IMG/VR virus record: IMGVR_UViG_3300045973_000245
Span: 1-62,755 of that record
Reading direction: 5' to 3' (one strand)
Source of the DNA: a virus
Length of the DNA: 62,755 nt
Made by a program: the position numbers and the translations under genes. Positions 1,319 through 50,012 of this stretch are shown one piece after another (the first letter of the stretch is position 1; each line of letters starts with the position of its first letter). Under the pieces are notes generated by a model. The model did not search any database, was not told the origin of the DNA, and saw only the letters and a list, made by a program, of their open reading frames with translations.

Positions 1319-1403
1319 GCTGAGTTCGCATAATGGTAGTGCCCCGGACTGTAAATCCGTAGGATGTATTTAGACATTGGTGGTTCAAGTCCATCACTCA
1401 GCA
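1319..1403 (+). tRNA. tRNA-Tyr (GTA)
   Basis: The acceptor is GCTGAGT/ACTCAGC and the anticodon loop CTGTAAA places GTA at 1351-1353. The T loop is TTCAAGT. The long 18-nt variable arm has an ATGT/ACAT stem, as expected for bacterial tRNA-Tyr. The discriminator is A, followed by CCT rather than CCA, so end repair or addition is needed; a CCA-adding enzyme is encoded nearby. The top pair of the anticodon stem is mismatched. Confidence 0.92.
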
Positions 1404-1411
1404 CCTAATTT

Positions 1412-1485
1412 CGTAGGGAAGCTTAAACGGGATAAGCATCTGTCTGATACACAGAAGATAGTTGGTTCAAATCCAACTCCTACGA
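1412..1485 (+). tRNA. tRNA-Ile (GAT)
   Basis: The acceptor is CGTAGGG/TCCTACG and the D stem GCTT/AAGC. The anticodon stem TCTGT/ACAGA has loop CTGATAC with GAT at 1446-1448. The T arm is GTTGG/CCAAC with loop TTCAAAT and the discriminator is A. The 3' end is followed by CC and then directly by the first base of the next tRNA, so CCA is not fully encoded. Position 8 is A instead of the usual T. Confidence 0.88.
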
Positions 1486-1487
1486 CC

Positions 1488-1561
1488 TGAACGCTAGTAC
1501 AATGATAGTGCAAAGGTCTTATATGCCTAGAATCGAGGTTTGATTCCTCGGCGTTCTACCA
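1488..1561 (+). tRNA. tRNA-Ile (TAT)
   Basis: The D stem is GTAC/GTGC, and anticodon loop CTTATAT gives TAT at 1520-1522. The T arm CGAGG/CCTCG has loop TTTGATT. Discriminator A is followed by an encoded CCA. The acceptor TGAACGC/GCGTTCT has a T:T mismatch at position 1:72. It reads AUA codons, which an AT-rich phage uses often. It abuts the preceding tRNA with no spacer beyond CC. Confidence 0.85.
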
Positions 1562-1580
1562 AACAAATAAAGGAGAAATA

Positions 1581-1850
1581 GTGGCAATGTTCGGTCCTAG
1601 AAAATATGGTCCTGGTGGAAGAGAATTTGACCCTGAATTTCTGGATGAATTGCTTGGAAAAGGAAATTGGAAAGCTACATATCCAGAAGAGAAAAAGGAA
1701 ACTACATCAATGACAGACGACGAATTAACTACCCACATAGCAGAAATGTGGGTAGCAAACGGTGGCGATGATGTAGGCTGGTATTTTTGTGCAGATTCTA
1801 TTGCTAATAAAATAGAAACTCTCGTTTATGCAGAGGATGATGAGGAATGA
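1581..1850 (+). CDS. Hypothetical protein
   Basis: 89 aa. A GTG start was chosen because AGGAG lies five bases upstream; the ATG six bases later is an alternative. The N terminus is Gly/Pro-rich ('FGPRKYGPGGREFDPEF') and the C-terminal half is acidic. First protein gene after the tRNA cluster. Function unknown. Confidence 0.6.
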   Translation: MAMFGPRKYGPGGREFDPEFLDELLGKGNWKATYPEEKKETTSMTDDELTTHIAEMWVANGGDDVGWYFCADSIANKIETLVYAEDDEE

Positions 1851-1957
1851 ACCAAGAAACGTTTGAATTCTGGTTTGCTGGGCTGTTCTTTCTAACGTAT
1901 ACTAGTCTGTACTGCATTTGGTGGTATAAAGCAATAGTTAAGGGAGAGTTTGACTGA
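1847..1957 (+). CDS. Single-pass membrane microprotein
   Basis: 36 aa, with a hydrophobic aromatic segment at about residues 8-30. It overlaps the upstream stop (ATGA) and its own TGA overlaps the next ATG. First of three consecutive tiny membrane proteins. Function unknown. Confidence 0.5.
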   Translation: MNQETFEFWFAGLFFLTYTSLYCIWWYKAIVKGEFD

Positions 1958-2058
1958 TGTTTTGGACTGGTGTTTGTATGGGTTTTCTAGTAGGAGTTTT
2001 TTGTGGAACAGCCACTTTTTACTTTGGAATCCTTTGGGGAATGAGGAAAAGAAAATGA
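1957..2058 (+). CDS. Single-pass membrane microprotein
   Basis: 33 aa, Gly- and Phe-rich membrane segment at about residues 3-27 with a basic C terminus (RKRK), suggesting the C terminus stays in the cytoplasm. It starts at the TGATG junction with the previous gene. Function unknown. Confidence 0.5.
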   Translation: MFWTGVCMGFLVGVFCGTATFYFGILWGMRKRK

Positions 2059-2222
2059 AAACATGGGGATTTAACATCGGACTGTTTGTGTTTGTGCTGA
2101 TTGTGATATTAATACAACGTAGCCTTCATGCTTCTTATGGAGTAATGTTGCTAACAGTTGGTGCTTTTTATGCAGCTAATGTTCTAGGCTTTTTAGAAGG
2201 GTTGATGAAGAAGTACAAATGA
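2055..2222 (+). CDS. Two-helix membrane protein
   Basis: 55 aa. Hydrophobic segments at about residues 7-22 and 27-46, with a basic tail KKYK. The start was chosen at the ATGA overlap; a longer in-frame reading runs back through the previous gene and is less likely. Function unknown. Confidence 0.55.
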   Translation: MKTWGFNIGLFVFVLIVILIQRSLHASYGVMLLTVGAFYAANVLGFLEGLMKKYK

Positions 2223-2452
2223 AACTTTTCATTCAAGACAGTCTTGCACACACTATCTATCGCGTAGAGAATCGTGATGCAAGAGCCGAGGAATTGTGGG
2301 AAGTGTTCAAAGAAGAACAAGGTATGGAGACTAATGAGTATAAGTATCCCTACCTTCACGGTCTTTGTCAAGGTCTATTAGGTGAGTGTCTTTATGATTT
2401 GAAAGCAGCTTTAGAACAAATCAATAAAGACCACCCTGAAAAGGAAGAATGA
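2219..2452 (+). CDS. Hypothetical protein
   Basis: 77 aa with an ATGA start overlap. Mixed alpha/beta composition with a helical acidic C terminus. No recognised motif. Function unknown. Confidence 0.55.
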   Translation: MKLFIQDSLAHTIYRVENRDARAEELWEVFKEEQGMETNEYKYPYLHGLCQGLLGECLYDLKAALEQINKDHPEKEE

Positions 2453-2700
2453 TGTTGTCTAAGAAGGACAAGTCAAAGAAAGAGCCTATTACTAATTGTC
2501 TACCAAATAGCTGTTTAGAATGGGGAGACACTGGTTTTACAGGCGACCATAAATGGGGCAAATGGATGGAATTTTCTCGTGGAGATAGGGGCAGAACCAA
2601 TCTCTATACGGGTGCTTTCTATAGAGAGGGTATTTTTGTTCTTCAAGAGAGAAAATGTTCTGTCTGCGGTGAAATCGAAATGCAGAAGATAACTGTATGA
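2449..2700 (+). CDS. Hypothetical protein with a C-terminal CxxC
   Basis: 83 aa, Lys-rich N terminus, Trp/Gly-rich middle and a CSVCGE knuckle near the C terminus. Cys17 and Cys22 could complete a metal site. The start overlaps the previous stop and a second ATG follows at once. Function unknown. Confidence 0.55.
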   Translation: MMLSKKDKSKKEPITNCLPNSCLEWGDTGFTGDHKWGKWMEFSRGDRGRTNLYTGAFYREGIFVLQERKCSVCGEIEMQKITV

Positions 2701-2864
2701 GAACTCACTACTTTGTATGGCAAGATGATGATACTATGAAGTTGTATCCCTATACAGTTTTCAAACTAGATGGTATCATGATAACTAAGATTGCTTGCTT
2801 CAAAAATCTTTGGGAAGCAGGAGATTATGCAGATTTTCTAGAAAGAAAAGAGTTTCCAAAATGA
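2697..2864 (+). CDS. Hypothetical small protein
   Basis: 55 aa, beginning at an ATGA overlap and ending at another. It starts with a beta-rich aromatic stretch and ends in a helix. Function unknown. Confidence 0.5.
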   Translation: MRTHYFVWQDDDTMKLYPYTVFKLDGIMITKIACFKNLWEAGDYADFLERKEFPK

Positions 2865-3007
2865 ACATTTTGCTTTGGGTTTCAATTGTAATAATGGTAC
2901 TTCAATATCTAGTAATGGCAATAGATACGAAGATATCGGGTGGTGTAAAAATTCTGGCCTATGCTTTGACAATGCCGATTTTCATTTACTTGATTCTGTC
3001 TATCTAG
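2861..3007 (+). CDS. Two-helix membrane microprotein
   Basis: 48 aa with hydrophobic segments at about residues 3-21 and 29-47. The ATG overlaps the preceding TGA; a longer in-frame version would overlap the upstream gene by 67 bases. Function unknown. It is followed within eight bases by tRNA-Lys. Confidence 0.55.
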   Translation: MNILLWVSIVIMVLQYLVMAIDTKISGGVKILAYALTMPIFIYLILSI

Positions 3008-3014
3008 TTTTCTC

Positions 3015-3088
3015 GCAGGTGTAACTCAATTGGCTAGAGTAGCTGACTTTTAATCAGCAAGTTGGGGGTTCAAATCCCCCCGCCTGTA
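3015..3088 (+). tRNA. tRNA-Lys (TTT)
   Basis: The acceptor GCAGGTG/CGCCTGT has a G1:T72 wobble. The anticodon stem GCTGA/TCAGC has loop CTTTTAA with TTT at 3049-3051, and the T arm is GGGGG/CCCCC with loop TTCAAAT. The discriminator is A and the following bases are CTT, so CCA is not encoded. Confidence 0.92.
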
Positions 3089-3117
3089 CTTGTATTATAA
3101 TGAAAAAGGAAGGGTAA

Positions 3118-4035
3118 ATGGCATTTCATATACATGACTACGGCAAAGTCTACAACAATGGCGTTAAATACGTTATGGAAGTGTTTAATGGTCCTGTTAC
3201 TGTGCAAGAAAAAGTAGATGGAAGTCAGATTTCTTTCGGCTTTATTGAAGGCGAACTTTGCTTTCGTAGCCATAACCAGCAGATAATGTGCTATGCCCCT
3301 AATGATATGTTTGCGGCAGGTGTTAAAGCTATCGAAGAAATCAAAGATATGCTTATCCCTAATGTAATCTATCGTGGTGAGTATCTACAGAAACCAAAGC
3401 ACAATGCTTTAAAGTATGAACGAGTGCCAGCCCGACATATCATTCTATTTGATATGGAAGATGCAACCCATCCAGATAACTATTTTCCATCTGATATAGT
3501 AGCCGAAGAAGCCGAACGTTTAGGCTTGGAATGTGTACCAACCTACTTTGTGGGTAAAGTAGATAGTGTAGAGAGTTTGCTACCGTTCTTGACTGAGAAG
3601 AAGCCAATTTTAGGCGGAGATTTCATAGAAGGAATAGTAATCAAGAACTACAATTTGTCCGATGGTATGGGTAAATTCCTGAAGGCTAAAATTGTGGCAG
3701 ATGATTTCCGAGAAGTACACAAACAAGCGTGGGGTGAAGCTAACCCTAGCCGCCAGGACGTTGTTAAAGAGCTTGTGGGGTATCTTAGGACAGAAGCAAG
3801 GTGGAACAAGGCTATTGCCCACCTGAAAGAGAACGGGGAATTACAAGAGGCTCCACAGGATATCGGCCCGCTATTAAAAGCGGTGAATCAGGATATCCTT
3901 GACGAAGAAATAGAATACATCAAAGAGATTCTATTTAAGCACTTTTGGAAGGATATATCTCGCGGAGTAACTAATGGACTTCCAGAGTGGTATAAGCGAA
4001 AACTAGTTGGTGTCGATATGGGCATTGACTTGTAA
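3118..4035 (+). CDS. RNA ligase, nucleotidyltransferase superfamily
   Basis: 305 aa. It joins RNA 5'-phosphate and 3'-OH ends through a covalent lysyl-AMP. Motif I is EKVDGS with the predicted nucleophile Lys32. Later come a motif III-like YRGEY, motif IIIa HIILFDME, motif IV EGIVIKNY and motif V LKAKIV, in the right order for the Rnl2-like RNA ligase family. The start follows AAAGGAAGGGTAA. It lies between tRNA-Lys and tRNA-Trp and upstream of a CCA-adding enzyme, which fits tRNA repair. Family is secure; substrate is inferred. Confidence 0.9.
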   Translation: MAFHIHDYGKVYNNGVKYVMEVFNGPVTVQEKVDGSQISFGFIEGELCFRSHNQQIMCYAPNDMFAAGVKAIEEIKDMLIPNVIYRGEYLQKPKHNALKYERVPARHIILFDMEDATHPDNYFPSDIVAEEAERLGLECVPTYFVGKVDSVESLLPFLTEKKPILGGDFIEGIVIKNYNLSDGMGKFLKAKIVADDFREVHKQAWGEANPSRQDVVKELVGYLRTEARWNKAIAHLKENGELQEAPQDIGPLLKAVNQDILDEEIEYIKEILFKHFWKDISRGVTNGLPEWYKRKLVGVDMGIDL

Positions 4036-4043
4036 TAGTTTGC

Positions 4044-4114
4044 AGAGAGTTGGTGTAAAGGTAGCACAAAAGCTTCCAAACCTTTTAGTACGGGTTCAAG
4101 TCCTGTACTCTCTG
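4044..4114 (+). tRNA. tRNA-Trp (CCA)
   Basis: The acceptor AGAGAGT/ACTCTCT is perfect and the D stem is GTGT/GCAC. Anticodon loop TTCCAAA gives CCA at 4076-4078. The T arm is ACGGG/CCTGT with loop TTCAAGT. The discriminator is G73, the known bacterial TrpRS identity base. The last anticodon-stem pair is a C:C mismatch. CCT rather than CCA follows. Confidence 0.88.
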
Positions 4115-4117
4115 CCT

Positions 4118-4180
4118 AAGCCTAGCGTGTAACGAGTTAGATTATAGAGGGTCTAACCACCGCCATGACGCTAGGCTTTT
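4118..4180 (+). other. Nested hairpin, possible terminator or structured RNA
   Basis: AAGCCTAGCGT (4118-4128) pairs perfectly with ACGCTAGGCTT (4168-4178). An inner stem GTTAGA/TCTAAC (4136-4141/4152-4157) sits inside. Only TTTT follows, so termination would be weak. It lies between tRNA-Trp and the tmRNA-like RNA and may separate or help process them. Bases 4181-4264 show nothing I can name. Confidence 0.45.
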
Positions 4181-4264
4181 CTCACGGCAATAACCCAAAA
4201 AGGTCGTTAACCCGTCTATCCTCTTATAGTGTAGGGGGTAGTGCGTCAATTATCGGGGTCTAAT

Positions 4265-4342
4265 GGGGGCGGGTTGGTTTCGACAAACAATAAACCGAAA
4301 GGCATTGTTTGGACCTCGGTTCAATTCCGAGCGCCTCCACTA
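4265..4342 (+). ncRNA. tmRNA-like RNA lacking the mRNA domain
   Basis: The 5' end carries the tmRNA hallmark GGTTTCGAC behind acceptor strand GGGGGCG, which pairs with CGCCTCC at the 3' end. The third pair is G:U, the alanyl-tRNA synthetase identity element. The T arm is CTCGG/CCGAG with loop TTCAATT, preceded by TTTGGAC as in bacterial ssrA. Discriminator A is followed by CTA. A perfect 8-bp helix CAAACAAT/ATTGTTTG, equivalent to tmRNA P2, is capped by CC-GAAA-GG. There is no anticodon arm, tag ORF or pseudoknot region, and the whole RNA is about 75 nt. Confidence 0.65.
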
Positions 4343-4365
4343 ACTTAATGAAAGGGGGTGTATAA

Positions 4366-4596
4366 ATGACTAAGAAGAGAAAGAAACAGCAAGAAGGAGT
4401 AAAAGCTTTCTCTCATATTGATGAGTATATCTATGAGATTCTCTTGCGCGAAGATATGTTTGATGATGTTGCATCATCGACTGAGCGTTGGAGTAAATTC
4501 GATAGAATCATTGAACAAGTGAGGGACAGTGTTAAGGAATCTTTGCAAAAATCGTTTGACGAAATCTTTGGTGAAGACACCATCGTCGTCATGTGA
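4366..4596 (+). CDS. Hypothetical protein
   Basis: 76 aa, preceded by a strong AAAGGGGGTG site. A basic N terminus (KKRKKQQ) precedes a mostly helical acidic remainder. First protein gene after the second RNA cluster. Function unknown. Confidence 0.6.
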   Translation: MTKKRKKQQEGVKAFSHIDEYIYEILLREDMFDDVASSTERWSKFDRIIEQVRDSVKESLQKSFDEIFGEDTIVVM

Positions 4597-4606
4597 AGGA
4601 AAAAGA

Positions 4607-4756
4607 ATGTGTAAGTATTTCATAACATACAAAACTCAAGGTGGAGAAATTCGTACTCTAGTAGGACAAGTAGAGTCGGATAAAATTGCTGATGTGTGGG
4701 TAAAAAGTTTGCCCAATCGAGCAACTGTGTTGACTATTTTCATTAGTATGGTCTAG
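4607..4756 (+). CDS. Hypothetical small protein
   Basis: 49 aa, started at the ATG behind GAAGGAAAAAG. The sequence alternates strands and short helices with no motif. An in-frame extension upstream would lie inside the previous gene. Function unknown. Confidence 0.5.
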   Translation: MCKYFITYKTQGGEIRTLVGQVESDKIADVWVKSLPNRATVLTIFISMV

Positions 4757-4764
4757 GTGATTAA

Positions 4765-5829
4765 ATGATTGAAGAAGTGATGGAAGTGGTCACTGAAATC
4801 ATGGACCCAATTCCGGTTTATGGTGTTGGTGGCATGGTAAGGGATTGGCTAATGGATAGGGAGTCTGATGATATAGACCTAACTACTCCTGCCACTCCAG
4901 ATGAAATCATTGCACAACTGGAAATAAAAAATCCAGGGCGCAAGATATGGGAAACTGGTAAGCGGTTTGGTACGGTAGCAACTAAAATATACCTGCCTAC
5001 AAGTGACCGCTATGAGAAAGTTGAAATTACCACTTTCCGCACAGAAGAATATGATGGTAAAAGTAGAAAACCTAAAGTGGAATTTGTTAGGAATCTACAT
5101 GAAGACCTAATGCGTCGAGATTTTACCATTAATGCTATTGCGGTACGACTGAAAAAAGGTCGTATTCATATTATTGACCCGTTCAATGGTATGGGTGATA
5201 TCGAAAGTGGTATTATTCGCGCGGTAGGTAGTGCAAAACAGCGTTTTAGGGAAGACCCACAACGTATGCTTAGAGCAGCAAGGTTTAATTCTGCTCTTGG
5301 TTTCCCAATTGAAGAAATTACTATGAAAAGAATGAGGGATGCAAGTCCTGCAATTCTTAAAGTGAGCAAAGAACGTTGGATGCAAGAACTTGATAAACTA
5401 CTTGTAGGTCCAAATGTAATGCAAGCACTCTATATTCTTATGGAAACTAGGCTGCTAAATTACATGATTCCCGAACTTGCTCTGCAATACAATTATGACC
5501 AACAGACTCCATATCATGATTTCACTCTTTGGGAACATACTTGCCGAGTTGTTCAGGCAGTACCTAAAGATGATGTTGAACTGGCATGGATTGGTCTATT
5601 TCACGATGTAGGTAAACCTTATGCTGCATTTCAGAAGAATGAAGAGCAGAAGATTTACGTTGGTCATGAGCTAATCGGTAAAGAACTTACCGAACAAATT
5701 GGTAGGCATCTGAAATGGTCTGCTGATAGAATCAAAACTGTCTCTGAAGGTGTAGGTAATCACCTTGATGAGAAAAGTCGTATCAAAGGCTACGACTCTG
5801 GCGCACAGAAAAGGGTAGATAATGAATGA
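4765..5829 (+). CDS. cca: CCA-adding enzyme / tRNA nucleotidyltransferase with HD domain
   Basis: 354 aa. It adds or repairs the 3' CCA of tRNAs using CTP and ATP. The class II head has the GGMVRD flexible-loop motif (about residues 21-26) and the catalytic DIDLTT pair of Asp. It is followed by RRDFTINA and an EDPQRMLRAARF neck, and then a HDVGK metal site in the C-terminal HD domain. At 354 residues it is shorter than many bacterial enzymes and ends soon after the HD core. Six of the seven tRNA-type RNAs here lack a full CCA, which fits need for this enzyme. The stop lies inside a strong terminator hairpin. Confidence 0.92.
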   Translation: MIEEVMEVVTEIMDPIPVYGVGGMVRDWLMDRESDDIDLTTPATPDEIIAQLEIKNPGRKIWETGKRFGTVATKIYLPTSDRYEKVEITTFRTEEYDGKSRKPKVEFVRNLHEDLMRRDFTINAIAVRLKKGRIHIIDPFNGMGDIESGIIRAVGSAKQRFREDPQRMLRAARFNSALGFPIEEITMKRMRDASPAILKVSKERWMQELDKLLVGPNVMQALYILMETRLLNYMIPELALQYNYDQQTPYHDFTLWEHTCRVVQAVPKDDVELAWIGLFHDVGKPYAAFQKNEEQKIYVGHELIGKELTEQIGRHLKWSADRIKTVSEGVGNHLDEKSRIKGYDSGAQKRVDNE

Positions 5830-6881: not shown

Positions 6882-7121
6882 ATGGAAACTGGAACTGTTA
6901 ACGTTCGTCTTGCTGTCCAGGGTTCTGGATGCGTTTTGGAATTCGAAGTTGATGAAGGTACTACGATTGGTGAACTGCGTGCAATGCAGACTACCCTTCG
7001 CGGTCTTGATATCAAAATCGGTGCCAACAAAGTTAGCGACGAAGATGAAATCGAAGCTAATGAAGACGGCACTCCCACTACTATCATTGGCACAAAAGAT
7101 GTCAAGGGTGGTATCGCCTAG
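6882..7121 (+). CDS. Ubiquitin-like beta-grasp protein (PRTRC C-like)
   Basis: 79 aa, started at the ATG after AAAAGGAGAA. Predicted beta-grasp: two strands ('TVNVRLAV', 'CVLEFEVDE'), a helix ('TIGELRAM'), then short strands. It ends K-G76-G77-I78-A79. The Gly-Gly two residues from the end is what a peptidase would need to expose before adenylation by an E1. The order Ubl, E2-like, JAMM, E1-like matches the bacterial PRTRC cassettes (proteins C, B, A and ThiF). A strong terminator 25 bases downstream could make it more abundant than the enzymes that follow. Confidence 0.75.
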   Translation: METGTVNVRLAVQGSGCVLEFEVDEGTTIGELRAMQTTLRGLDIKIGANKVSDEDEIEANEDGTPTTIIGTKDVKGGIA

Positions 7122-7145
7122 TCAATAGGTGAAAGACTAATTGAT

Positions 7146-7181
7146 GGGAATGGGGGTAGCAATATCCCCATTCCCTATTTT
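7146..7181 (+). terminator. Intrinsic terminator after the Ubl gene
   Basis: GGGAATGGGG (7146-7155) pairs perfectly with CCCCATTCCC (7166-7175) around a 10-nt loop, followed by TATTTT. The T tract is short, so partial read-through is likely. It separates the Ubl gene from the E2-like gene and may set their ratio. Confidence 0.75.
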
Positions 7182-7210
7182 AGTGTTATCCCTAGCTGAA
7201 AGGAGACTAA

Positions 7211-9127
7211 ATGAACATCATTCTTCCTAAGTCTGATGCTAACAAATTCGTTAATGAAATTAATGAGTTTGCCCTAGATATACGCGCACCACATAGTAGC
7301 TATTACTATGAAGATTTAACGTCGCGCGGAGTCTATTCATGGGTACATTATTCAGAGTACCCGCCGCTCACAAAAGAATTTGTGGACGAATATCTAGCCA
7401 CAAAATTCCCTCACCTTACAGTACTTCATACCATAAAAGAAGAGCAAGATAGCTACTTCGCGTATGAACAAAAAGTGCTGGTAAATGCTGGGGATTCAAC
7501 TAACACAAGCGTAACACAAGAAATAGCGTGGAGAAATAAAGTAAATGAAACTGTAAATCAGTTTGATTTTCTTCTACCGTTTGTGTTAGAATTCAATCCG
7601 AAGGACTGCAATTTTGCTCGATATACTCCTACAGTTATGCTCACTCCGTATGGGATATGGTATAATCAAGGGAAACCGCATATTAGTGCTGGTCCTCAAA
7701 TTCTGGCTTTTAACAAAGCCGCAGTATTGGCGTATAACCAATCTCAGTATAATCCTGCATTCTTATACGAAGCACAGGACCATTCCGGGGATTATCTTAC
7801 GCTTCCATTTGCTTTGGTTTATGAGAATAAACGAGGCTTAGGGAATACTGTGCAGATGTGTTCTAATAAATTCTATCCGACTCAAACTATTTCAAAACAG
7901 AAGACTATCTTTGATTTACTTGCTGAGCCGACTATATGGAAGAGAATTATATTTCATTTGCTTTGGACTCCGCTTGCTCAACTAAAGATTGAATCTGAGC
8001 AAGTAGTAATTCCGCTCTCTTTGCAGGTAAAAATGTTTTCTTTCCAGAATCAATCTGCAATTAGGCAGGAGATAGAATCATTAGAGAACAATAAGGGCGA
8101 AATGCGACGTAATATCGACGCATATATCAAGGAAATCACTAACTACAAGGTAAAAGAGAGCCTGTTAGAAGAGCAGATTATTGTGAAGCATAAAGAGCTT
8201 GCTCGTAGAGCTTCCAGTAAAAACTTTGAGAGAGAACTGAAGAATCTCAAGACTCTTCCCTACATAAAAGACTTTGAGTTTAAAGGTGGTGGAATCTGCT
8301 TTTATACAGAACCTATACAGATTGATAGTGGGCCTACTCTTGGTGGGTACGAAATCAAGTACTCAATGGTTGATAAGAGCCTCAAGATTAGAAACGTAGA
8401 CAATCCTCATGAGAGTCTTGCACACCCGCATATTTATCAGGATGGAGATATCTGTTTTGGTAACTACACTGATGTATTCTTCCGGTTTGAAACAGGAGAA
8501 TTCTACATTGGTATGCAATTGTTGCATGAATTCTTGTCTAGCTATAACCCGGAAGATGAATGGGGACGTAGGCTAATCTATTGGGATGCCAAATTTGTCT
8601 TTGAAGATATGAAGATGCGTGGACTTCTTCATAAACTAGAAGGCAAATGGGATTCGTACTATTACGATATCTATCACGAACACATGAGTAGCAACAACTA
8701 TTGTTCTAGTTGTGAGTTGCCATTGGACGAATGTGAATGTGACCGTTGCCAGTATTGCCAGGAATTCACAGATAACTGTGAGTGTTGGATTTGCTATTCC
8801 TGCGGTGAATTGGTAGAAGATGGTTGTGGGTGTGAACGATGTGCTTCTTGTCAAGAATTGATTAGGGATTGTGGTTGTGAGCGGTGTGAAAACTGCGAAG
8901 AATTGACAAACACTAACTACAGCCCATGCTGTGAGTGTGAACGTTGTCCTGATGATGATTCACTTCTTGATGAAGATGATGAACGTTGTCTCACTTGCCA
9001 AAATACAGACTGTGGACATAACATGAACGAAGACCCTATTCCTACTCAAGAGGAAGAATTGCCACTGCATGAAGCAATGGAACCTGACATATATGAACTA
9101 CTTAGAACAGTATTGGAAGGACGATGA
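7211..9127 (+). CDS. E2-like (UBC-fold, PRTRC B-like) protein with Cys-repeat tail
   Basis: 638 aa. The N-terminal 270 residues have no recognised motif. A coiled coil spans about 278-340. An E2-like domain (about 345-470) holds H405-P-H407-I-Y, then G-D-I-C415-F-G, the layout of E2 conjugating enzymes, where HP(N/H) precedes the catalytic Cys; Cys415 is the predicted thioester site. Residues about 498-580 carry five tandem modules of the form CxxC-x5/6-C-x-C-x2-C, likely zinc-binding, followed by an acidic tail. This arrangement resembles an E2 with a built-in RING-like adaptor, an inference. AAAGGAGAC precedes the ATG, and the stop overlaps the JAMM gene. Confidence 0.75.
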   Translation: MNIILPKSDANKFVNEINEFALDIRAPHSSYYYEDLTSRGVYSWVHYSEYPPLTKEFVDEYLATKFPHLTVLHTIKEEQDSYFAYEQKVLVNAGDSTNTSVTQEIAWRNKVNETVNQFDFLLPFVLEFNPKDCNFARYTPTVMLTPYGIWYNQGKPHISAGPQILAFNKAAVLAYNQSQYNPAFLYEAQDHSGDYLTLPFALVYENKRGLGNTVQMCSNKFYPTQTISKQKTIFDLLAEPTIWKRIIFHLLWTPLAQLKIESEQVVIPLSLQVKMFSFQNQSAIRQEIESLENNKGEMRRNIDAYIKEITNYKVKESLLEEQIIVKHKELARRASSKNFERELKNLKTLPYIKDFEFKGGGICFYTEPIQIDSGPTLGGYEIKYSMVDKSLKIRNVDNPHESLAHPHIYQDGDICFGNYTDVFFRFETGEFYIGMQLLHEFLSSYNPEDEWGRRLIYWDAKFVFEDMKMRGLLHKLEGKWDSYYYDIYHEHMSSNNYCSSCELPLDECECDRCQYCQEFTDNCECWICYSCGELVEDGCGCERCASCQELIRDCGCERCENCEELTNTNYSPCCECERCPDDDSLLDEDDERCLTCQNTDCGHNMNEDPIPTQEEELPLHEAMEPDIYELLRTVLEGR

Positions 9128-9933
9128 TAATGACAGCTATTGCCCAAACAACTTTGTGGATTCCTCCTAAGATTTATGCAGAGCTAATGTTTTATGCATG
9201 GACAGTTGATGCAGAAGTTGGTGGTGTAGGTACTCTGGAATTCAATTGTCCAGAGCCTAATGATATCTATGTGACCGAAGTATTTCTTGAAAAGCAGAAA
9301 GTGCATGGCACCGAATGCCTGCTTTCTAAAGACGATTCTACCTATGAAAAATTGATTCTCAGTAATGAGATTGAAAAAGCGTGTAAGCTGCAACTTTGGT
9401 GGCATTCTCATCACACAATGGGTGCAGGACACTCTACGACTGATGATACAACGATGCGAGAGTGGTCCGGGGAATATGTCGTGGCTTTAGTAATCAACCG
9501 CAAGGGAGATTTGAAAGCTAAACTTATGACCAAAATTCCTGTAATGGTTGTCGGAGATATTGAGGTAAGAATCAATTGGCTCGACATTGAAGCAGGAGAA
9601 GAAATGGGTGCAGAAGTAGCAGCTAAAGTTACTAAAGAAGCCCCTCAAGCAGTAGTAACGTATTGTGGCAATTATGCTCAGCAGCAATGGCAGCAAGTAA
9701 GTGGTGAATATGAGCATGATAAACAGACAGGCTTATGGGGCAAAAAGAAAAAGGATGATGAAGCTACCCCTTTACACAGTATGACCGAGGCAGAGTGGGT
9801 AGAAATGGAAGAAGAGTATTACGAACTGCTGGACGACAAAGACATAAAAACTCTAGGTTTTCCAGTAGGTGAAATGGACGCAGATGAAAAGAGAGCGTTG
9901 AAACAGATTTGGGATGCTAAGGAATGTGACTGA
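9124..9933 (+). CDS. JAB/JAMM metallopeptidase (PRTRC A-like)
   Basis: 269 aa. The zinc motif is complete: Glu31, then His94-Ser-His96-x7-Ser104-x2-Asp107, the HxHx7SxxD signature of deubiquitinating JAMM peptidases. The catalytic domain fills about residues 10-150; the rest is a variable acidic extension with an acidic helix near 215-245. In this cluster the likely role is trimming the Ubl C terminus to expose Gly-Gly and releasing Ubl from targets. It is coupled to the E2-like gene by a four-base overlap. Confidence 0.9.
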   Translation: MIMTAIAQTTLWIPPKIYAELMFYAWTVDAEVGGVGTLEFNCPEPNDIYVTEVFLEKQKVHGTECLLSKDDSTYEKLILSNEIEKACKLQLWWHSHHTMGAGHSTTDDTTMREWSGEYVVALVINRKGDLKAKLMTKIPVMVVGDIEVRINWLDIEAGEEMGAEVAAKVTKEAPQAVVTYCGNYAQQQWQQVSGEYEHDKQTGLWGKKKKDDEATPLHSMTEAEWVEMEEEYYELLDDKDIKTLGFPVGEMDADEKRALKQIWDAKECD

Positions 9934-10124
9934 TGCAAAAGACTGATGTAGGAGAAGTCTGGATTATCTGGCGTAAAATACCAGGAACTCATCATAACTC
10001 AATATGGGAAGTGTGTGATGATGAATATTCTGGCCAGAAAATTCTGAATACACTGATGAATAAATCAGAATTCACTATGTATAAGTATGCAATCACGCAT
10101 GTTGTGACGGAGAGAGTAATATGA
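9933..10124 (+). CDS. Hypothetical protein within the Ubl module
   Basis: 63 aa between the JAMM and E1-like genes, overlapping both by 1-4 bases. Begins with a beta-strand-rich Trp segment. No recognised motif. Its tight coupling suggests a small accessory subunit, but this is inference only. Confidence 0.6.
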   Translation: MQKTDVGEVWIIWRKIPGTHHNSIWEVCDDEYSGQKILNTLMNKSEFTMYKYAITHVVTERVI

Positions 10125-10786
10125 CAGACGTAAATGAGGCGTATCTTCGTAGCATTGATATCTTTGACCCCAATAAAGCTAGGCCAGTATCTATTATTGG
10201 TTGTGGGTCTATTGGTAGCTTTGCTGCTAAGACTCTAGCTAAGATGGGTGTACAGAAGTTTAATCTGTATGATGGTGATATTGTCACTCAGGTTAACATT
10301 GGTTGTCAGGATTTTGGCTGGAAAGACCTAGGAAAACCCAAAGTTGAGGCTGTTAGGGACTTGATTTTAGAAAACTCTCCTGTAAAGCCAGAGGATATCA
10401 ACATCCATTTTGGCTATATAGATGATAAGTCTAAGTTGCCGTTTATTCCTACGATTGTAGGAGTGGACAGTATGACAGCAAGACATTTGATTTGGGGCAA
10501 ACTAAAGAATAAGGCACCTATTATAATTGACGGGCGCATTGGTGGACAGATTGTAAGAGTATTCAGCGTCACTAATGATTATGCAAGCATGGAATACTAC
10601 GAACAATATCTGAAAACTGATGAAGAAGCTGAAGAGCTACCGTGTACACAACGTAATGTGTGCTATGTGGCTAACATTACTCAAGGCATCATAGGACAAA
10701 TGATGCGGAGCTATATCGAGAAAGGGGTAGCTGCTAAAGAAATCGGTATTGATGTGGAGACGTTTATAAACTACGTTAAGGAGTAG
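10121..10786 (+). CDS. E1-like ThiF/MoeB-family adenylating enzyme
   Basis: 221 aa with a Rossmann nucleotide site GCGSIG (27-32), the DGD acidic turn (51-53) and a downstream Asn/Gln pair (VNIGCQ) in place of the usual N-x-x-RQ. It would adenylate the Gly-Gly end of the Ubl using ATP. The Cys in PCTQRNVC near residue 175 are candidates for a thioester or structural site. No adenylation-domain extensions are present, so it is a minimal E1 like the PRTRC ThiF proteins. Confidence 0.88.
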   Translation: MTDVNEAYLRSIDIFDPNKARPVSIIGCGSIGSFAAKTLAKMGVQKFNLYDGDIVTQVNIGCQDFGWKDLGKPKVEAVRDLILENSPVKPEDINIHFGYIDDKSKLPFIPTIVGVDSMTARHLIWGKLKNKAPIIIDGRIGGQIVRVFSVTNDYASMEYYEQYLKTDEEAEELPCTQRNVCYVANITQGIIGQMMRSYIEKGVAAKEIGIDVETFINYVKE

Positions 10787-12722: not shown

Positions 12723-13122
12723 TGACCTATCAAATAGAGCAGCACCAATCTTACTTTTCAACTTTGAGCGAGTAATTTGTGAAGAGTTTGATAAGAAAAC
12801 GTGGCGAACACCAGAATACAAAGTAAATCAACAAAACATTCATGCAATAAATCAGTTATTCTTGAAAGATTTCCGCATCTTGTACCTAACATTTGAGTGG
12901 CCTGATAAAAAGTTAGACAAATTGGAAGACGAATTAGACCTTGATGGTTGTCTATTTAATGGAATGATTAAAACCAAGGACACACATTCTTTGCAAGAGT
13001 TTCTCAAGCACAATTTGGGGTCACACTATTTCGATACTGATATAACATTAGTAAAAAGTCTAGGTCAATATGCTAGTCAATGGCAAGGATATCTCATAAG
13101 TCTATGGGGCGGTAATCTATGA
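12712..13122 (+). CDS. HAD-like protein with altered catalytic motif
   Basis: 136 aa, started at the ATG 11 bases inside the previous gene. The opening strand 'PILLFNFERVICEEFD' resembles HAD phosphatase motif I (DxDG), but Asn and Glu replace the two Asp. 'RILYLTF' resembles motif II. If correct this is a non-catalytic HAD fold. Its stop overlaps the helicase start. Low-certainty fold guess. Confidence 0.4.
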   Translation: MLNNDLSNRAAPILLFNFERVICEEFDKKTWRTPEYKVNQQNIHAINQLFLKDFRILYLTFEWPDKKLDKLEDELDLDGCLFNGMIKTKDTHSLQEFLKHNLGSHYFDTDITLVKSLGQYASQWQGYLISLWGGNL

Positions 13123-14402
13123 ATATAGAGACTGGCCTAATTTCTAAGATTGAGAGCAAGGAAGATTTACTATATGTTCTTGACGAGAGAATTAATGAGA
13201 AATTCTTTGAAGAGCATGGTGAAATATTTCAGTCGATGCTTGATTATTACAAGAAATATTTGACCGTACCTGGGAAAGAAGTCATTAGTAGTTACTTTCC
13301 TAACTTTGTATTCTCAGATATAGACGAGCCTCTTGCATTCTTTGTAGACGAAATAAAGAAGAAGCACAAAAAGAATATTTACAATACGGGGCTTATTGAA
13401 GTAGTCGAGTTGATGAAGGATGATATTGATGTAGCTGAACAAAAGTTGCAACAATTGTTATCGACTTCTAAGACTGAAATCAAGACAACAGTAGATTTAG
13501 ATGTGCGTTCCAATGCAGCCTTAACAAAGCTAGAATATGAAGAGAAGAAGGGGCATCTAGGCATAGATGGGTATGAGTTGCCGTGGGAATATCTGAACAA
13601 TCTAACTGGCGGGGCACATAAAGGTGAGCTAATTGTATGGTCTGCTCGTCCTAAAATTGGCAAGACTTGGTTAGCAACCTGGATAGCAAAACATATTTGG
13701 CGCGAATGCAATGTGCCAATTGTCTTTATAACTAAGGAAATGCGCCCAAAAGCAATTAAAGATAGGGTATCAGCGATTGAAACAGGTCTACCATATGATG
13801 CTTTGAAACGAGGCTTTCTTACTGATGCTCAACAGAGATTCTATTATGAATATCTTGATAGGCTTGAAGAAGAAAAGGAAGAAGGATATCCAGATTTTAT
13901 TATACCAGGATATTCACTATCAGATACTATTGGTGGAGTATCAAGCATTATTCCTAAAGTAGAACAGCATCTAATGCATGGTGGTGTTTTAATTGTGGAC
14001 GGAATGTATTTGTTGCCTGATGATAGAGGCGAGAAAGATTGGAAAGCTATTGTTAACATTTCGATGGATTTGAAGAATCTTGCCTTAGCCTATAACATTC
14101 CTGTGATAGCAACAACTCAGCAGAATATGTCGGACAAGAATCCAACACCTACATTTGACGGAGCAGCTTATGGCAAATATCTTGTACAGTTTGTAGATGC
14201 GTTTCTTGGTATTGGTAGAAATGCTACGGACTACACTTTAGGTAGAGGTAGAATTTATATGCTTGGACAACGAGAAGGTGATGTTGGTGACTTTCCAATT
14301 GATATGAAATTCTCACCAGTAGATTTCTCACAAGCATATGAGAAAACTGTAGAAGACACAAATATGGATGAAGACGACGATGATGAAAGTATGAGGTATT
14401 AA
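13119..14402 (+). CDS. DnaB-like replicative helicase
   Basis: 427 aa. The N-terminal 150 residues are helical; the C-terminal RecA-like core has Walker A PKIGKT, Walker B VLIVDG and the TQQN segment typical of DnaB/SF4 helicases. An acidic tail (DEDDDDES) ends the protein. It would unwind the phage replication fork together with the primase encoded next. The start overlaps the previous stop (ATGA). Confidence 0.88.
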   Translation: MNIETGLISKIESKEDLLYVLDERINEKFFEEHGEIFQSMLDYYKKYLTVPGKEVISSYFPNFVFSDIDEPLAFFVDEIKKKHKKNIYNTGLIEVVELMKDDIDVAEQKLQQLLSTSKTEIKTTVDLDVRSNAALTKLEYEEKKGHLGIDGYELPWEYLNNLTGGAHKGELIVWSARPKIGKTWLATWIAKHIWRECNVPIVFITKEMRPKAIKDRVSAIETGLPYDALKRGFLTDAQQRFYYEYLDRLEEEKEEGYPDFIIPGYSLSDTIGGVSSIIPKVEQHLMHGGVLIVDGMYLLPDDRGEKDWKAIVNISMDLKNLALAYNIPVIATTQQNMSDKNPTPTFDGAAYGKYLVQFVDAFLGIGRNATDYTLGRGRIYMLGQREGDVGDFPIDMKFSPVDFSQAYEKTVEDTNMDEDDDDESMRY

Positions 14403-14616: not shown

Positions 14617-15513
14617 ATGGACCTACAAGAGCTAGCTAATTTTCTTGGCTTACAAAAGGTCAAGATTAGAGGGGATGAAATACATGCATCCTGTCCATTT
14701 CCTGAAGCACACCTTACAGGAAAAGATACACATCCAAGTTTCTTTCTTAATCCTGAAAAGGGGGTATACAATTGCTTCTCTTGCGGGAACAGAGGAACTA
14801 TTGAAGAACTCGTTGCCAGGATTAAGCATACGACAATTAGTGAGGCTTTATCTCAACTTGACAACATAGGATTCAACCGAATAGCACTAAAGTTACGAGA
14901 GAAGGTAAAGAATGAGTATCCAGAAATTCTACCCGAAGGAATCCTCTACTACTTCGACAAAGTGGATGATGAAGTTGCTGAAACTTATCGGGGTGAAGTG
15001 GATGGACAGGATTGCTTAGTCTATCCTGTTCGTAATCGTGAAGGACACTTGGTTGGTGCATTAGCTAGAAGTGTTGAGGGTCGTTGGCACAAAATCATGT
15101 GGAATATGACGAAGAAGTATCTTTATGGCGAGAATTGTGTTAAACTAGAAGTTCCATTAATAGTGGTTGAAGGCCCAGGTGATGCCATCGCAATACGGCG
15201 TTCAGGTATGAAGAATGTAGTGGCATTAATGGGTAGCAATCTGTCTAATGAGCAAGCTGAGCGCCTTTTGTGGTTGTCAAGTAAACTGGTTATTTGGGCA
15301 GACAAAGACAAGGCTGGTGCTAAGTGTATCAACCAATGTATTAGGAAGCTGGATAAACGCGCGACTGTTAGATACATTGACCCCTGGAAACTCTTACCAG
15401 AAGGCTGTAAAGACGCAAAAGAGGTCTATGAGAAATTCGGTTACGAAGCAGTACAGTATATAGTTGAGGAAGCAAAGACATTCTTAGAACAAGTATTGGA
15501 GAATAAGAAATGA
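14617..15513 (+). CDS. DnaG-type DNA primase, zinc and TOPRIM domains
   Basis: 298 aa. The N-terminal zinc site uses CPF...H and YNCFSCG, as in DnaG and T7 gp4. The TOPRIM core has the Glu motif VVEGPGDAIA (about residues 181-190) and WADKDKAG. There is no fused helicase, which is a separate gene two frames upstream. It makes RNA primers for lagging-strand synthesis. It starts directly after the previous stop. Confidence 0.88.
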   Translation: MDLQELANFLGLQKVKIRGDEIHASCPFPEAHLTGKDTHPSFFLNPEKGVYNCFSCGNRGTIEELVARIKHTTISEALSQLDNIGFNRIALKLREKVKNEYPEILPEGILYYFDKVDDEVAETYRGEVDGQDCLVYPVRNREGHLVGALARSVEGRWHKIMWNMTKKYLYGENCVKLEVPLIVVEGPGDAIAIRRSGMKNVVALMGSNLSNEQAERLLWLSSKLVIWADKDKAGAKCINQCIRKLDKRATVRYIDPWKLLPEGCKDAKEVYEKFGYEAVQYIVEEAKTFLEQVLENKK

Positions 15514-24708: not shown

Positions 24709-25370
24709 AAGTAATACTTAAAGCGCGTGTAGGGTCACATCTGTATGGGCTAGACACGCCTGAATCAGATGAAGATTTTCTCGGTGTTTATGTTGCAAGA
24801 ACTTGGGAAGTTCTTAGTCTACATCACAAACCGCAGGAAACAGGTGTAACTAAAGACCCTGACTGTACTATTCATGAAGTAGAAAAGTATATGAAGTTAG
24901 CTGCACAGGGAAATCCGACTGTATTGGAGCTTCTATTTTGCCCCGAATATCTTGAACAAACTTTTGAAGGTGAACAGCTACTTTATTATAGGGATGCATT
25001 TCTAAGTAATCGTGTTAGAGACAGCTATGGTGGGTACGCCTATCAGCAATCTAAGAAACTAGAGACACGTATTAAGCAGGGACTAGAGGGATTTGAACCC
25101 GCAGTAAAGAAGCGTTACGAGAAACACGCACGACATATCTTTAGATTGATGCTACAGGGTGAAGAGTTAATGACAACGGGAACTATAACTCCGCGCGTTA
25201 AAGACCCTGAATCTTTGTTTGCGATTGGGAAATTGCCGCCAGAGAAATTGATTCCTAGATTTGAAGAGGCATATGCAAGGTATAAAGAACTGCCTAGCAT
25301 ACTCCCTGAACAACCAAAGTGGGAAATCTTGGATATTTTGCTGAATGATATAAGGAGAAGAAACTTATGA
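24705..25370 (+). CDS. RlaP-type nucleotidyltransferase (Pol beta superfamily)
   Basis: 221 aa from a TTG start. GSHLYGLDTPESDEDF holds the G-S and D-x-D metal residues of COG3541/RlaP-like nucleotidyltransferases. RlaP-type enzymes are predicted to act on RNA ends and often sit beside RNA ligases. Here RtcB and RNA ligase are in the same genome. The substrate is unknown. Confidence 0.8.
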   Translation: MKVILKARVGSHLYGLDTPESDEDFLGVYVARTWEVLSLHHKPQETGVTKDPDCTIHEVEKYMKLAAQGNPTVLELLFCPEYLEQTFEGEQLLYYRDAFLSNRVRDSYGGYAYQQSKKLETRIKQGLEGFEPAVKKRYEKHARHIFRLMLQGEELMTTGTITPRVKDPESLFAIGKLPPEKLIPRFEEAYARYKELPSILPEQPKWEILDILLNDIRRRNL

Positions 25371-26182
25371 TTCTTTTCAATGGCGTTGAACCAGTTAAAA
25401 AGTTTCCTAATGGGGAGACTCATATTGATACTGATTTGATTATCAATAGAATGAGTCTGAAAGTCAATATTATCTCTTGCAAGTACGAGTCAGATGCAGA
25501 CCTGTTTCAACTAATGTTACTCAAGAGATATACTGACACTCTTTCTTGTGTTTGTCAACTTTTTATTCCATATCTGCCATACAGCAGAATGGATAGAACT
25601 GAAGCCGGTAGTGCTTTCACCTTGAAATATGTGTGTGAGTTTATCAATAGCCTGAACTTCTATGAAGTGCATGTAGTTGAGCCACATTCTGATGTATCAG
25701 TAGCATTGCTAGATAAAGTCAAGGTGCATTTTGTTACAGATAAGTTATTTGAGTATGCCTCTAATTATTGGGGCTTTAACGAGAATGACTACATCTTTTT
25801 TCCAGATGCAGGTGCTAAGAAAAGATACAAAACGTTTAACAGTGAGAATATTATCTTTGGTGATAAGGCTAGAGATTTTTCCACTGGCAAGATTACTGGT
25901 CTTAATGTGATTGGTGACTTCAAGCCGGGTGGGTTAGTTTACATTATTGACGACCTGTGTTCTTATGGTGGAACATTTGTGCTGGCAACAGAGAAACTAA
26001 TGGAAATGGGTGCAAGAGCAGTAATACTTATTGTGGCCCATTGCGAAGATTCTTATCTACAAGGGAAAATCCCTGCTAATAACGATATTATCAAGGTACT
26101 ATCTACTGATAGTATTTACACAAAAGGTTCTGAGGGAAAGCTGACCATCTATAAAGCCAATAAATTTTTGGGGGATAAATGA
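25367..26182 (+). CDS. prs: Ribose-phosphate pyrophosphokinase (PRPP synthetase)
   Basis: 271 aa. FPNGETHI, LPYLPYSRMDR, VHVVEPHSDVS and the PRPP-binding loop VYIIDDLCSYGGT are in order. It makes PRPP from ribose-5-phosphate and ATP. It is translationally coupled to the NAMPT gene that consumes PRPP, a standard two-gene phage NAD salvage unit. Confidence 0.92.
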   Translation: MILFNGVEPVKKFPNGETHIDTDLIINRMSLKVNIISCKYESDADLFQLMLLKRYTDTLSCVCQLFIPYLPYSRMDRTEAGSAFTLKYVCEFINSLNFYEVHVVEPHSDVSVALLDKVKVHFVTDKLFEYASNYWGFNENDYIFFPDAGAKKRYKTFNSENIIFGDKARDFSTGKITGLNVIGDFKPGGLVYIIDDLCSYGGTFVLATEKLMEMGARAVILIVAHCEDSYLQGKIPANNDIIKVLSTDSIYTKGSEGKLTIYKANKFLGDK

Positions 26183-28524: not shown

Positions 28525-28691
28525 AAACTAGATGTAAACATGACTGGCCTAAATGGGGAGAACCCTACTTTGTTGATGCAGAGTGGGGTGGTAAACTTCT
28601 TAAGAAGGAATATCAAAGACGAGCCTGTAATAAATGTGGGCTAATAGAGAAAAATTTTATAGGAGATTACTATGCCTTTGAATGTAGATAG
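28521..28691 (+). CDS. Zinc-binding microprotein
   Basis: 56 aa. C5-K-H and RACNKCGLIEK suggest a zinc ribbon like others in the window. Overlaps the RtcB gene by 20 bases. Function unknown. Confidence 0.55.
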   Translation: MKTRCKHDWPKWGEPYFVDAEWGGKLLKKEYQRRACNKCGLIEKNFIGDYYAFECR

Positions 28692-48679: not shown

Positions 48680-48815
48680 AAAAGAAATTATTACAGTTTG
48701 TCCTGAGTGTGGCTGTAAATCGTGGATTGCTACAACAAAAGGACAAATGTGCAAGCAGTGTGGCTTTACTCAAGGTGCAGCACCTTTTTACGCACTAGAA
48801 GATAAAGAAGAATGA
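48663..48815 (+). CDS. Zinc-ribbon microprotein
   Basis: 50 aa. CPECGCKSW and CKQCGF make a standard zinc ribbon. It starts at an ATG 17 bases inside the previous gene. Function unknown. Confidence 0.6.
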   Translation: MVKRNKKEIITVCPECGCKSWIATTKGQMCKQCGFTQGAAPFYALEDKEE

Positions 48816-49840: not shown

Positions 49841-50003
49841 AGAAGAAAAGAAACCAAAATATTGGTATATGATTTACGAAGACGAGTGTGTTCTTTGTGG
49901 CCGTCACGATATTTGGCGTGAAAGACAAGACACTCCAAAACCTGAAAAATGGGAAGACCGTCATGAGCGTACTGAGTATGCTTGTGATTGGCATTTTTTA
50001 TAA
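49830..50003 (+). CDS. Small Cys/His-rich protein
   Basis: 57 aa, overlapping the GT4 gene by 11 bases. ECVLCGRHD and terminal CDWH suggest one zinc site. Lys-rich start. Function unknown. Confidence 0.55.
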   Translation: MDSKEEKKPKYWYMIYEDECVLCGRHDIWRERQDTPKPEKWEDRHERTEYACDWHFL

Positions 50004-50012
50004 AGGAGACAA

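What the first reader, a model, noticed from the sequence alone, without database searches (positions are those of the whole stretch)
6882..10786. Phage-encoded ubiquitin-like conjugation module with Ubl, E2-like, JAMM and E1-like genes
Four genes in 4 kb give a Ubl with Gly-Gly near its end, an E2-like protein with HPH-x(7)-C, a complete JAMM peptidase (HxHx7SxxD) and a minimal ThiF E1. The order parallels bacterial PRTRC cassettes, but this copy has no ParB-like genes and is in a phage. A phage might tag host defence proteins or its own virion.
Basis: partly seen in the sequence, partly recalled or inferred. Interest (0 to 1): 0.95.

Follow-up and report, generated by a model that had tools for sequence, protein, structure and literature searches.

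The report
Phage-borne ubiquitin-like protein tagging cassette
This bacterial virus carries a compact set of genes for a ubiquitin-like tag, the two enzymes that would attach it and the enzyme that would trim or remove it; the same four-gene cassette sits beside the DNA-replication genes of hundreds of other phages, including the crAss-like phages of the human gut, although I found no paper that describes it.

Summary
In detail: all four genes and motifs are where stated. AlphaFold gives the 79-aa Ubl a beta-grasp fold whose best solved matches are SUMO and ubiquitin. The E2 core matches human E2s by profile (score 47; 100 shuffles reach at most 25). JAMM catalytic residues and the E1 cysteine are invariant in all relatives tested. 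The window is a phage fragment (portal, DnaB, primase, PolA).

(1) The cassette is conserved: scans gave over 300 confirmed viral contigs, with E2-JAMM-E1 order in 123 of 130 loci, in crAss-like, Flavobacterium and other environmental phages, and sporadically in Patescibacteria genomes; it sits beside primase/recombinase genes. (2) A strong terminator-like hairpin follows the Ubl gene here and in 16 of 34 crAss-like gaps, so the tag is probably made in excess of its enzymes.

It fails PRTRC membership tests but works like PRTRC/Bil systems. Most likely it is a conjugation-deconjugation pathway acting during phage replication; all chemistry is inferred and the targets are unknown. The E2 fold could not be confirmed by structure prediction. 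New variant of a known kind.

The parts
6882..7121 (+). Ubiquitin-like modifier (Ubl), 79 aa, C-terminus ...VKGG-IA (Gly-Gly at residues 76-77, two-residue tail)
   Evidence: AlphaFold2 pLDDT 79, strands-helix-strands beta-grasp; Foldseek PDB hits are SUMO-2/3, ubiquitin, archaeal ubiquitin; ThiS Pfam matches in 9 of 31 relatives; GG conserved
7146..7175 (+). Intrinsic-terminator-like hairpin (13 pairs, 4-nt loop, TATTTTAG tail) between Ubl and E2 genes; predicted to make Ubl transcripts exceed enzyme transcripts
   Evidence: similar hairpins in 16 of 34 crAss-like Ubl-E2 gaps, 0 expected from shuffles
7211..9127 (+). E2-like protein, 638 aa: N-terminal region and predicted helical/coiled-coil stretch, E2/UBC core, Cys-rich C-terminal region
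8213..8584 (+). E2/UBC-like core (residues 335-458) with HPHIYQDGDIC: H405 at 8423-8425, predicted catalytic Cys415 at 8453-8455
   Evidence: profile-profile match to human E2s; HMM made without the window finds it at E=2.9e-15
8678..9010 (+). Cys-rich region (residues 490-600, 24 Cys; repeated CxxC-x(n)-CxCxxC units), probable multi-zinc domain
   Evidence: direct reading; CxxC-x(4-9)-C motif in 22 of 59 relatives of the largest phage group
9124..9933 (+). JAMM/MPN+ metalloprotease (E31, H94-x-H96-x7-S104-x2-D107); starts 4 nt inside the E2 gene
   Evidence: Prok-JAB in 27 of 28 relatives; profile best PDB hit archaeal Rpn11 6fjv, E=1.1e-7; residues invariant
9933..10124 (+). 63-aa ORF of unknown role between JAMM and E1; not part of the usual order in relatives
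   Evidence: no family match; order in relatives
10121..10786 (+). Minimal E1-like adenylating enzyme (ThiF family), GxGxxG, Cys175 at 10643-10645 in LPCTQRN
   Evidence: Pfam ThiF 5e-15; invariant residues; PADLOC E1-E2 models 1e-16
13119..14402 (+). Context: DnaB-like replicative helicase downstream on the same strand
   Evidence: Pfam DnaB_C 8e-20
14617..15513 (+). Context: DnaG-type primase (zinc ribbon + Toprim)
   Evidence: Pfam Toprim 2e-13, Zn_ribbon_DnaG 1.5e-9

Best explanation
A phage-encoded ubiquitin-like conjugation and deconjugation pathway. The Ubl is translated with a short tail (IA here; 0-10 residues in similar phages, a whole 100-200-residue extension in crAss-like phages) that the JAMM peptidase removes to expose Gly-Gly. 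The ThiF-type E1 adenylates the Gly terminus with ATP and probably holds it as a thioester on Cys175, then passes it to Cys415 of the E2-like protein. The E2, alone or with its Cys-rich tail acting like an E3 or a substrate-binding arm, puts it on amino groups of target proteins; the JAMM enzyme also strips it off again. The terminator-like hairpin after the Ubl gene lets the tag be made in excess of its enzymes. Because the cassette sits beside primase, helicase and recombinase genes in three groups of phages, the likeliest targets are phage or host proteins of DNA replication/recombination during infection. Shown here: gene content, motifs, conservation, predicted Ubl fold, E2-core profile similarity, gene order, hairpin. 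Inferred: every chemical step and the targets.
For: Motifs and conservation. Predicted Ubl fold and structural hits to SUMO/ubiquitin; the structural search of viral proteins independently returned proteins of the size of the cassette Ubls of phage cr111_1 (211 aa) and a Fpv phage (289 aa) (130, against 9, 10, 15, 16). E2 core against human E2s: hhalign probability 93%, score 47.1 over 106-114 columns; 100 column-shuffles reach at most 24.9, reversed 12.8; a model built without the window finds the window at 2.9e-15. JAMM to archaeal Rpn11. Order Ubl-E2-JAMM-E1 kept. Replication context: primase upstream in 55 of 58 crAss-like loci, primase-helicase-like gene downstream in 39 of 41 of the other group (132; annotation 9, 12, 128, 129), DnaB and primase here. 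Terminator-like hairpin. No rhodanese domain and no CxxC pair in the window E1 (direct reading).
Against: The residue equivalent to MoeB Arg73/UBA1 Arg515 is not Arg in these E1s (Cys62 here; mostly Val or Gly elsewhere), so adenylation may differ in detail. The AlphaFold model of the E2-like protein is poor (pLDDT 46) and its fold search empty. With the HPx-C motif masked, the E2 match falls to 7%. The crAss-like 'E2' is linked by position and conserved H/C only (profile match 1%, 106). The closest relatives of the window copy (L006, L007, L157) end in LGD, LG or GNG instead of GG. No biochemical data, no identified target.
Confidence: 0.62

Rival explanations
1. Same conjugation chemistry, but the targets are host proteins: the phage tags, and so blocks or marks for destruction, host defence or regulatory proteins.
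For: Bacteria use related E1/E2/JAB sets in anti-phage defence (type II CBASS, PMC10097602), so the chemistry belongs to the phage-host conflict; the window phage carries other genes that look like counter-defence (tRNA end repair, RNA ligase, RtcB-like, NAMPT).
Against: Counter-defence genes usually vary between near relatives (general knowledge); this cassette is kept at a fixed place beside primase genes across crAss-like and other phages.
Confidence: 0.22
2. Sulfur-carrier pathway: the Ubl is a ThiS/MoaD-like carrier, the E1 makes a thiocarboxylate, and the phage uses the sulfur for nucleic acid or cofactor modification.
For: Weak ThiS/MoaD matches for Ubls; phage records call the E1 'thiamine biosynthesis protein'; Ubl+JAB+E1 sets without E2 exist in sulfur pathways (PMC1779556).
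Against: A conserved cysteine protein, with an E2 core in the window's group, always lies between Ubl and JAMM; no sulfurtransferase, cysteine desulfurase or sulfur-using enzyme was noticed in the cassettes.
Confidence: 0.08
3. Virion tagging: the phage decorates its own structural proteins, the reverse of Bil defence, which tags phage structural proteins.
For: Bacterial Ubl systems are reported to attach Ubls to phage structural proteins (own knowledge).
Against: The cassette lies in the replication half of crAss001, away from structural genes (PMC6235969); gp76-gp79 are not named in the main text of the crAss001 virion atlas, whose named cargo proteins are gp45, 46, 47, 49 and 50 (PMC10172136; its mass-spectrometry table was not readable).
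Confidence: 0.05
4. Defence inhibitor only: the JAMM protein cleaves host Ubl conjugates (CBASS, Bil) and the Ubl is a decoy; the E1/E2 genes are relics.
For: JAMM enzymes can reverse such conjugates; Ubl decoys are conceivable (general knowledge).
Against: E1 and E2 cysteines and other E1 active-site residues are invariant, so they are under selection.
Confidence: 0.03

Closest known systems
PRTRC cassettes (ParB-related, ThiF-related cassette; Iyer et al. 2006 operon type 6d is probably the same, my identification)
   Same: Separate small Ubl, E2-like, JAB and ThiF genes; a ParB-like gene beside the Ubl in six related phage loci
   Different: E1 22 bits against a 145-bit cut-off; no PRTRC model matches E2 or Ubl; the type 6d E2 lacks the histidine before the Cys and its JAB has an extra N-terminal domain (PMC1779556), neither of which is true here; no ParB in the window
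Bacterial conjugation defence systems (type II CBASS Cap2/Cap3; Bil; operon types 6a-6c)
   Same: E1, E2 and JAB chemistry; the E1 best matches PADLOC E1-E2 models
   Different: In CBASS E1 and E2 are fused and there is no separate Ubl gene (PMC12355090; own knowledge); here four separate genes, no CD-NTase, carried by a phage as a conserved gene set; no PADLOC match for Ubl, E2 or JAMM
crAss001 gp76-gp79 and Flavobacterium phage FpV4 ALN97163-ALN97166
   Same: Same order Ubl-(E2-like)-JAMM-ThiF
   Different: Annotated only as ThiF, metalloprotease or hypothetical; the Ubl is 225-289 aa with an internal KSG/KSGG and a long extension; E2-like protein not matched to UBC by profile
Patescibacteria cassettes (L157 Parcubacteria MAG; L172-L175)
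   Same: E2 core, JAMM, E1 and Ubl together; L157 has the closest E1 to the window's (37%)
   Different: In bacterial genome contigs; Ubl downstream of E1; some E2 proteins longer or with apparent membrane segments; Ubl ends GN or GNG or is doubled
Lambda/T1 tail assembly TAPI (Ubl) and TAPK (JAB+NlpC)
   Same: Phage Ubl plus JAB
   Different: No E1 or E2; tail genes (PMC1779556)
Caldiarchaeum ubiquitin-Rpn11 system
   Same: Separate Ubl, E1, E2 and Rpn11-like JAMM (PMC5654768); the JAMM profile and the Ubl fold hit its structures
   Different: Cellular archaeal system with a small RING protein; here a phage, with no RING recognised

Membership tests
Ubiquitin-like (beta-grasp) modifiers | beta-grasp fold | tested here: met
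   AlphaFold2 pLDDT 79, E5-12 E18-24 H29-35 E43-46 E66-71; Foldseek SUMO/ubiquitin, 7 hits E<1e-3
Ubiquitin-like (beta-grasp) modifiers | C-terminal Gly-Gly, directly or after processing | tested here: met
   KGG-IA here; GG plus 0-10 residues in relatives; but LG/LGD/GNG in L006, L007, L157
E2/UBC enzymes | HP motif and catalytic Cys at canonical spacing | tested here: met
   HPHIYQDGDIC against HPNVYPSGTVC of UBC9; C415 invariant in 41
E2/UBC enzymes | Homology to the UBC domain by profile | tested here: met
E2/UBC enzymes | UBC fold in a predicted structure | tested here: inconclusive
   AlphaFold model pLDDT 46, empty fold search
E2/UBC enzymes | Match to Pfam/NCBIfam E2 families | tested here: not met
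   none of 41 + 30 + 5 relatives matches a known E2 family
E1-like / ThiF superfamily | GxGxxG, Asp, Lys and conserved Cys | tested here: met
   Pfam ThiF 5e-15; K74 and D116 (MoeB K86, D130) and C175 invariant
E1-like / ThiF superfamily | Arg equivalent to MoeB Arg73 / UBA1 Arg515 | tested here: not met
   Cys62 here; V, G, S, T or N in 121 of 123 (residue roles from PMC12355090)
JAMM/MPN+ peptidases | E, HxH, S, D metal/catalytic set | tested here: met
   E31, H94, H96, S104, D107 invariant in 28; Rpn11 profile hit
PRTRC cassette | PRTRC_ThiF, protein B and protein C models above cut-off | tested here: not met
   22.1 against 144.75 bits; none for E2, Ubl
PRTRC cassette | ParB-related gene in the cassette | tested here: not met
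   none found in the window by motif scan and HMM; present in 6 related loci
Bil / CBASS / 6a-6c defence operons | System-specific proteins or E1-E2 fusion | tested here: not met
   separate genes; PADLOC and NCBIfam match only the generic E1
Ubl conjugation pathway (function) | ATP-dependent thioester relay and isopeptide conjugates | not testable with these tools
   needs biochemistry

The most novel reading that the evidence does not exclude
An ancient, core protein-tagging system of phages: crAss-like phages and at least two other phage groups run a ubiquitin-like conjugation/deconjugation cycle on their replication machinery (a phage counterpart of SUMO/ubiquitin control of replication), probably exchanged with ultra-small bacteria of the Patescibacteria.
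Probability: 0.35. Interest if true: 0.95.

Novelty: new variant of a known kind. Interest (0 to 1): 0.84.

Why it matters
Ubl conjugation in bacteria is known from defence systems and plasmid cassettes; a full tag-E1-E2-protease set kept as a fixed part of the replication region of many phages, including the crAss-like phages that are among the most abundant viruses of the human gut, would be a new layer of phage biology. It is directly testable, because crAss001 and the Flavobacterium phages are in culture and their genes 76-79 (or equivalents) are at present called ThiF, metalloprotease or hypothetical. It also bears on how E1-E2 systems spread outside eukaryotes.

Tried and rejected
Exact-word searches with the window E2 and E1 in viral contigs found nothing, so the copy itself is isolated. 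tblastn of the E2 and JAMM proteins against annotated phages found nothing. The AlphaFold model of the whole E2 protein was too poor to use and its fold search was empty. Profile searches of E2 alignments against PDB chains gave only chance hits; the E2 comparison was then made profile to profile with controls. I considered the crAss-like 'E2' proven by homology and rejected that: it rests on position and conserved H/C only. I considered filing the cassette as PRTRC and rejected it on the model scores. A plasmid search with the E1 found CBASS, polyUbl and other operons, no close relative. Of the three hits in species genomes, the Spirochaetia contig examined (L159) has crAss-like gene order and is probably phage contamination; L157 looks bacterial, but its contig is only 17 kb. 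The place of the window in the E1 tree is weak (long branch, quick tree, 102). No host could be inferred: the portal is closest to Streptomyces BRock-like phages at 30%. Literature searches in the open PMC library found no description of the phage cassette (13, 14, 23, 24, 65-67, 101, 111, 116; 117, 118, 120), but most subscription papers are not held.

Full report
Observation. The four ORFs exist as described and the motifs are exact: Ubl 6882-7121 ending VKGG-IA; E2-like 7211-9127 with H405-P-H-x7-C415; JAMM 9124-9933 with E31 and H94-x-H96-x7-S104-x2-D107; E1-like 10121-10786 with GCGSIGS and C175 in LPCTQRN. The first two genes each have a good ribosome-binding site. All lie on the plus strand; E2/JAMM and the 63-aa ORF/E1 overlap by a few bases. 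The window is a 62,755-base linear virus record with an SPP1-type portal, DnaB-like helicase, DnaG-type primase, PolA, RecA and ribonucleotide reductase, so 'in a phage' is right.

What the single proteins are. Ubl: no family match alone, but 9 of 31 relatives hit ThiS (best 1.3e-4), AlphaFold gives a beta-grasp with a floppy GG tail, and Foldseek against the PDB gives SUMO-2/3, archaeal ubiquitin and ubiquitin first. Against viral models it also returns proteins of phage cr111_1 (211 aa), Flavobacterium phage Fpv3 (289 aa) and cr106_1; by size and phage the first two correspond to the gene upstream of the E2-like gene in those cassettes. JAMM: 27 of 28 relatives match Prok-JAB; the profile's best solved relative is an archaeal Rpn11 (1.1e-7). 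E1: ThiF 5e-15; the best defence-library matches are E1-E2 fusions. Nine residues including Cys175 are invariant in 123 distinct relatives, but the Arg that corresponds to MoeB Arg73 is replaced (residue roles PMC12355090). The match of C175 to the E1 catalytic Cys is my reading of its P-x-C-T-like context and position.

The E2 question. No Pfam or NCBIfam E2 model matches. AlphaFold of the 638-aa protein failed (mean pLDDT 46) and its fold search is empty. However, the cores of the window, phage L006 and six Patescibacteria proteins align well, and this profile matches an alignment of five human E2s at 93% (score 47.1) along the whole UBC core, with HPH and Cys in register; 100 column-shuffled E2 alignments reach at most 24.9 and the reversed one 12.8. 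Masking the motif leaves 22.9 (7%), so the motif carries much of the signal. A model made without the window finds the window protein at 2.9e-15 and still matches human E2s at 91%. The E2-like proteins of the large environmental phage group match the core around the cysteine (89%); those of crAss-like phages do not (1%) and are called E2-like by position and their nearly invariant HSH and invariant C179 only.

The cassette elsewhere. A scan with the E1 alignment gave 67 loci and a scan with the window JAMM 255 confirmed stretches, 80 kept. In 123 of 130 loci with all three enzymes, the order is E2-like, JAMM, E1 within about 1 kb, with the Ubl upstream. In crAss-like and Flavobacterium phages the Ubl carries an internal KxKSG(G/A) followed by a 100-200-residue extension; in the other group it is about 66-97 aa ending K-T/S/R-GG or xKGG with 0-10 extra residues. 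This pattern is what a processing peptidase would explain. In six loci a ParB-like gene lies directly upstream of the Ubl, which strengthens the resemblance to PRTRC. In 84,980 species genomes the JAMM pattern found no confirmed relative and the E1 three; a targeted search of 380 genomes of the phylum of L157 (Patescibacteria) found E2-core matches in six and E1 matches in six, five of them the same genomes, with E2, JAMM, E1 and Ubl side by side in L157 and L172-L175 (in L174 no separate JAMM gene was recognised). An E1 tree separates the crAss-like set, the large environmental set, and a looser set of window + L006/L007 + Patescibacteria; the last grouping is weak.

Regulation and context. 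A 13-pair hairpin with a T-rich tail follows the Ubl gene (7146-7175). Sixteen of 34 distinct Ubl-E2 gaps of crAss-like phages have such a hairpin, against none expected from (mononucleotide) shuffles; only 1 of 35 in the other phage group has one. The simplest reading is that most transcripts stop after the Ubl, so the tag outnumbers its enzymes; this is inferred. A primase gene lies within 5 kb upstream of JAMM in 55 of 58 crAss-like loci, and a primase-helicase-like gene within 4.5 kb downstream of E1 in 39 of 41 loci of the other group, often after a Sak4-like or other short gene (annotation). In the window DnaB and primase follow 2.3 and 3.8 kb downstream. The cassette is thus tied to DNA replication in three groups of phages. 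In crAss001 it is in the replication half of the genome, and gp76-79 are not mentioned in the main text of the virion atlas.

Mechanism and rivals. The best reading is a full conjugation-deconjugation pathway (biochemical part about 0.85) whose targets are proteins of the replication stage (about 0.4 or more given the pathway, the rest spread over host proteins, virion or others). The overall statement is given 0.62. A sulfur-carrier pathway is disfavoured by the constant E2-like gene and by the absence of any sulfur enzyme seen in the cassettes.

Known or new. It works like PRTRC, CBASS/Bil and archaeal ubiquitin systems but is not a member of PRTRC by the models, nor of the defence systems by gene content. 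Iyer et al. 2006 (PMC1779556) predicted bacterial Ubl-E1-E2-JAB operons and a Ubl-JAB pair in phage tail genes, but no phage E1-E2 cassette. No open-access paper I could search describes this one; papers outside that library could.

Noticed in passing
window 57128-59698: Probable terminase large subunit gene split by an intein-like insertion: Cys after SRQ at residue ~80-83 and VHN-SGKTQ at ~396, i.e. inserted at the Walker A loop; no Pfam match.
   Followed up: partly
window 25367-27651: PRPP-synthetase-like gene overlapping a nicotinamide phosphoribosyltransferase (NAMPT) gene, a likely NAD+ salvage pair of the kind that phages use against NAD-depleting defence.
   Followed up: partly
window 1319-5829 and 28672-29886: tRNA genes with an RNA ligase, a CCA-adding/poly(A)-polymerase-type enzyme with HD domain, and an RtcB-like ligase: an apparent tRNA repair kit.
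   Followed up: partly
window 47811-48308 and 56707-57207: Two HNH/AP2-type homing-endonuclease-like genes, the second just before the intein-bearing terminase gene.
   Followed up: no
window 48812-54827: Cluster of glycosyltransferase, methyltransferase and sugar nucleotidyltransferase-like genes in a phage.
   Followed up: no
L086, L096, L099, L101, L116, L146: In one phage subgroup a radical-SAM (spore photoproduct lyase-like) gene of about 289 aa is inserted between the E2-like and JAMM genes.
   Followed up: partly
L173 2885-3496; L172 3642-4691: Patescibacteria Ubl genes with two beta-grasp-like units in one protein, as in polyUbl systems.
   Followed up: no
L138 2056-2265 and L142 58-294: Near-identical Ubls, one ending exactly at GG, the other running on for about nine residues (MTYYIKYSK): a natural pair for testing JAMM processing.
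   Followed up: no
L159 (Spirochaetia MAG contig): Contig with crAss-like gene order (primase, Ubl, E2-like, JAMM, ThiF) binned in a Spirochaetia MAG: phage contamination or an unusual host.
   Followed up: partly
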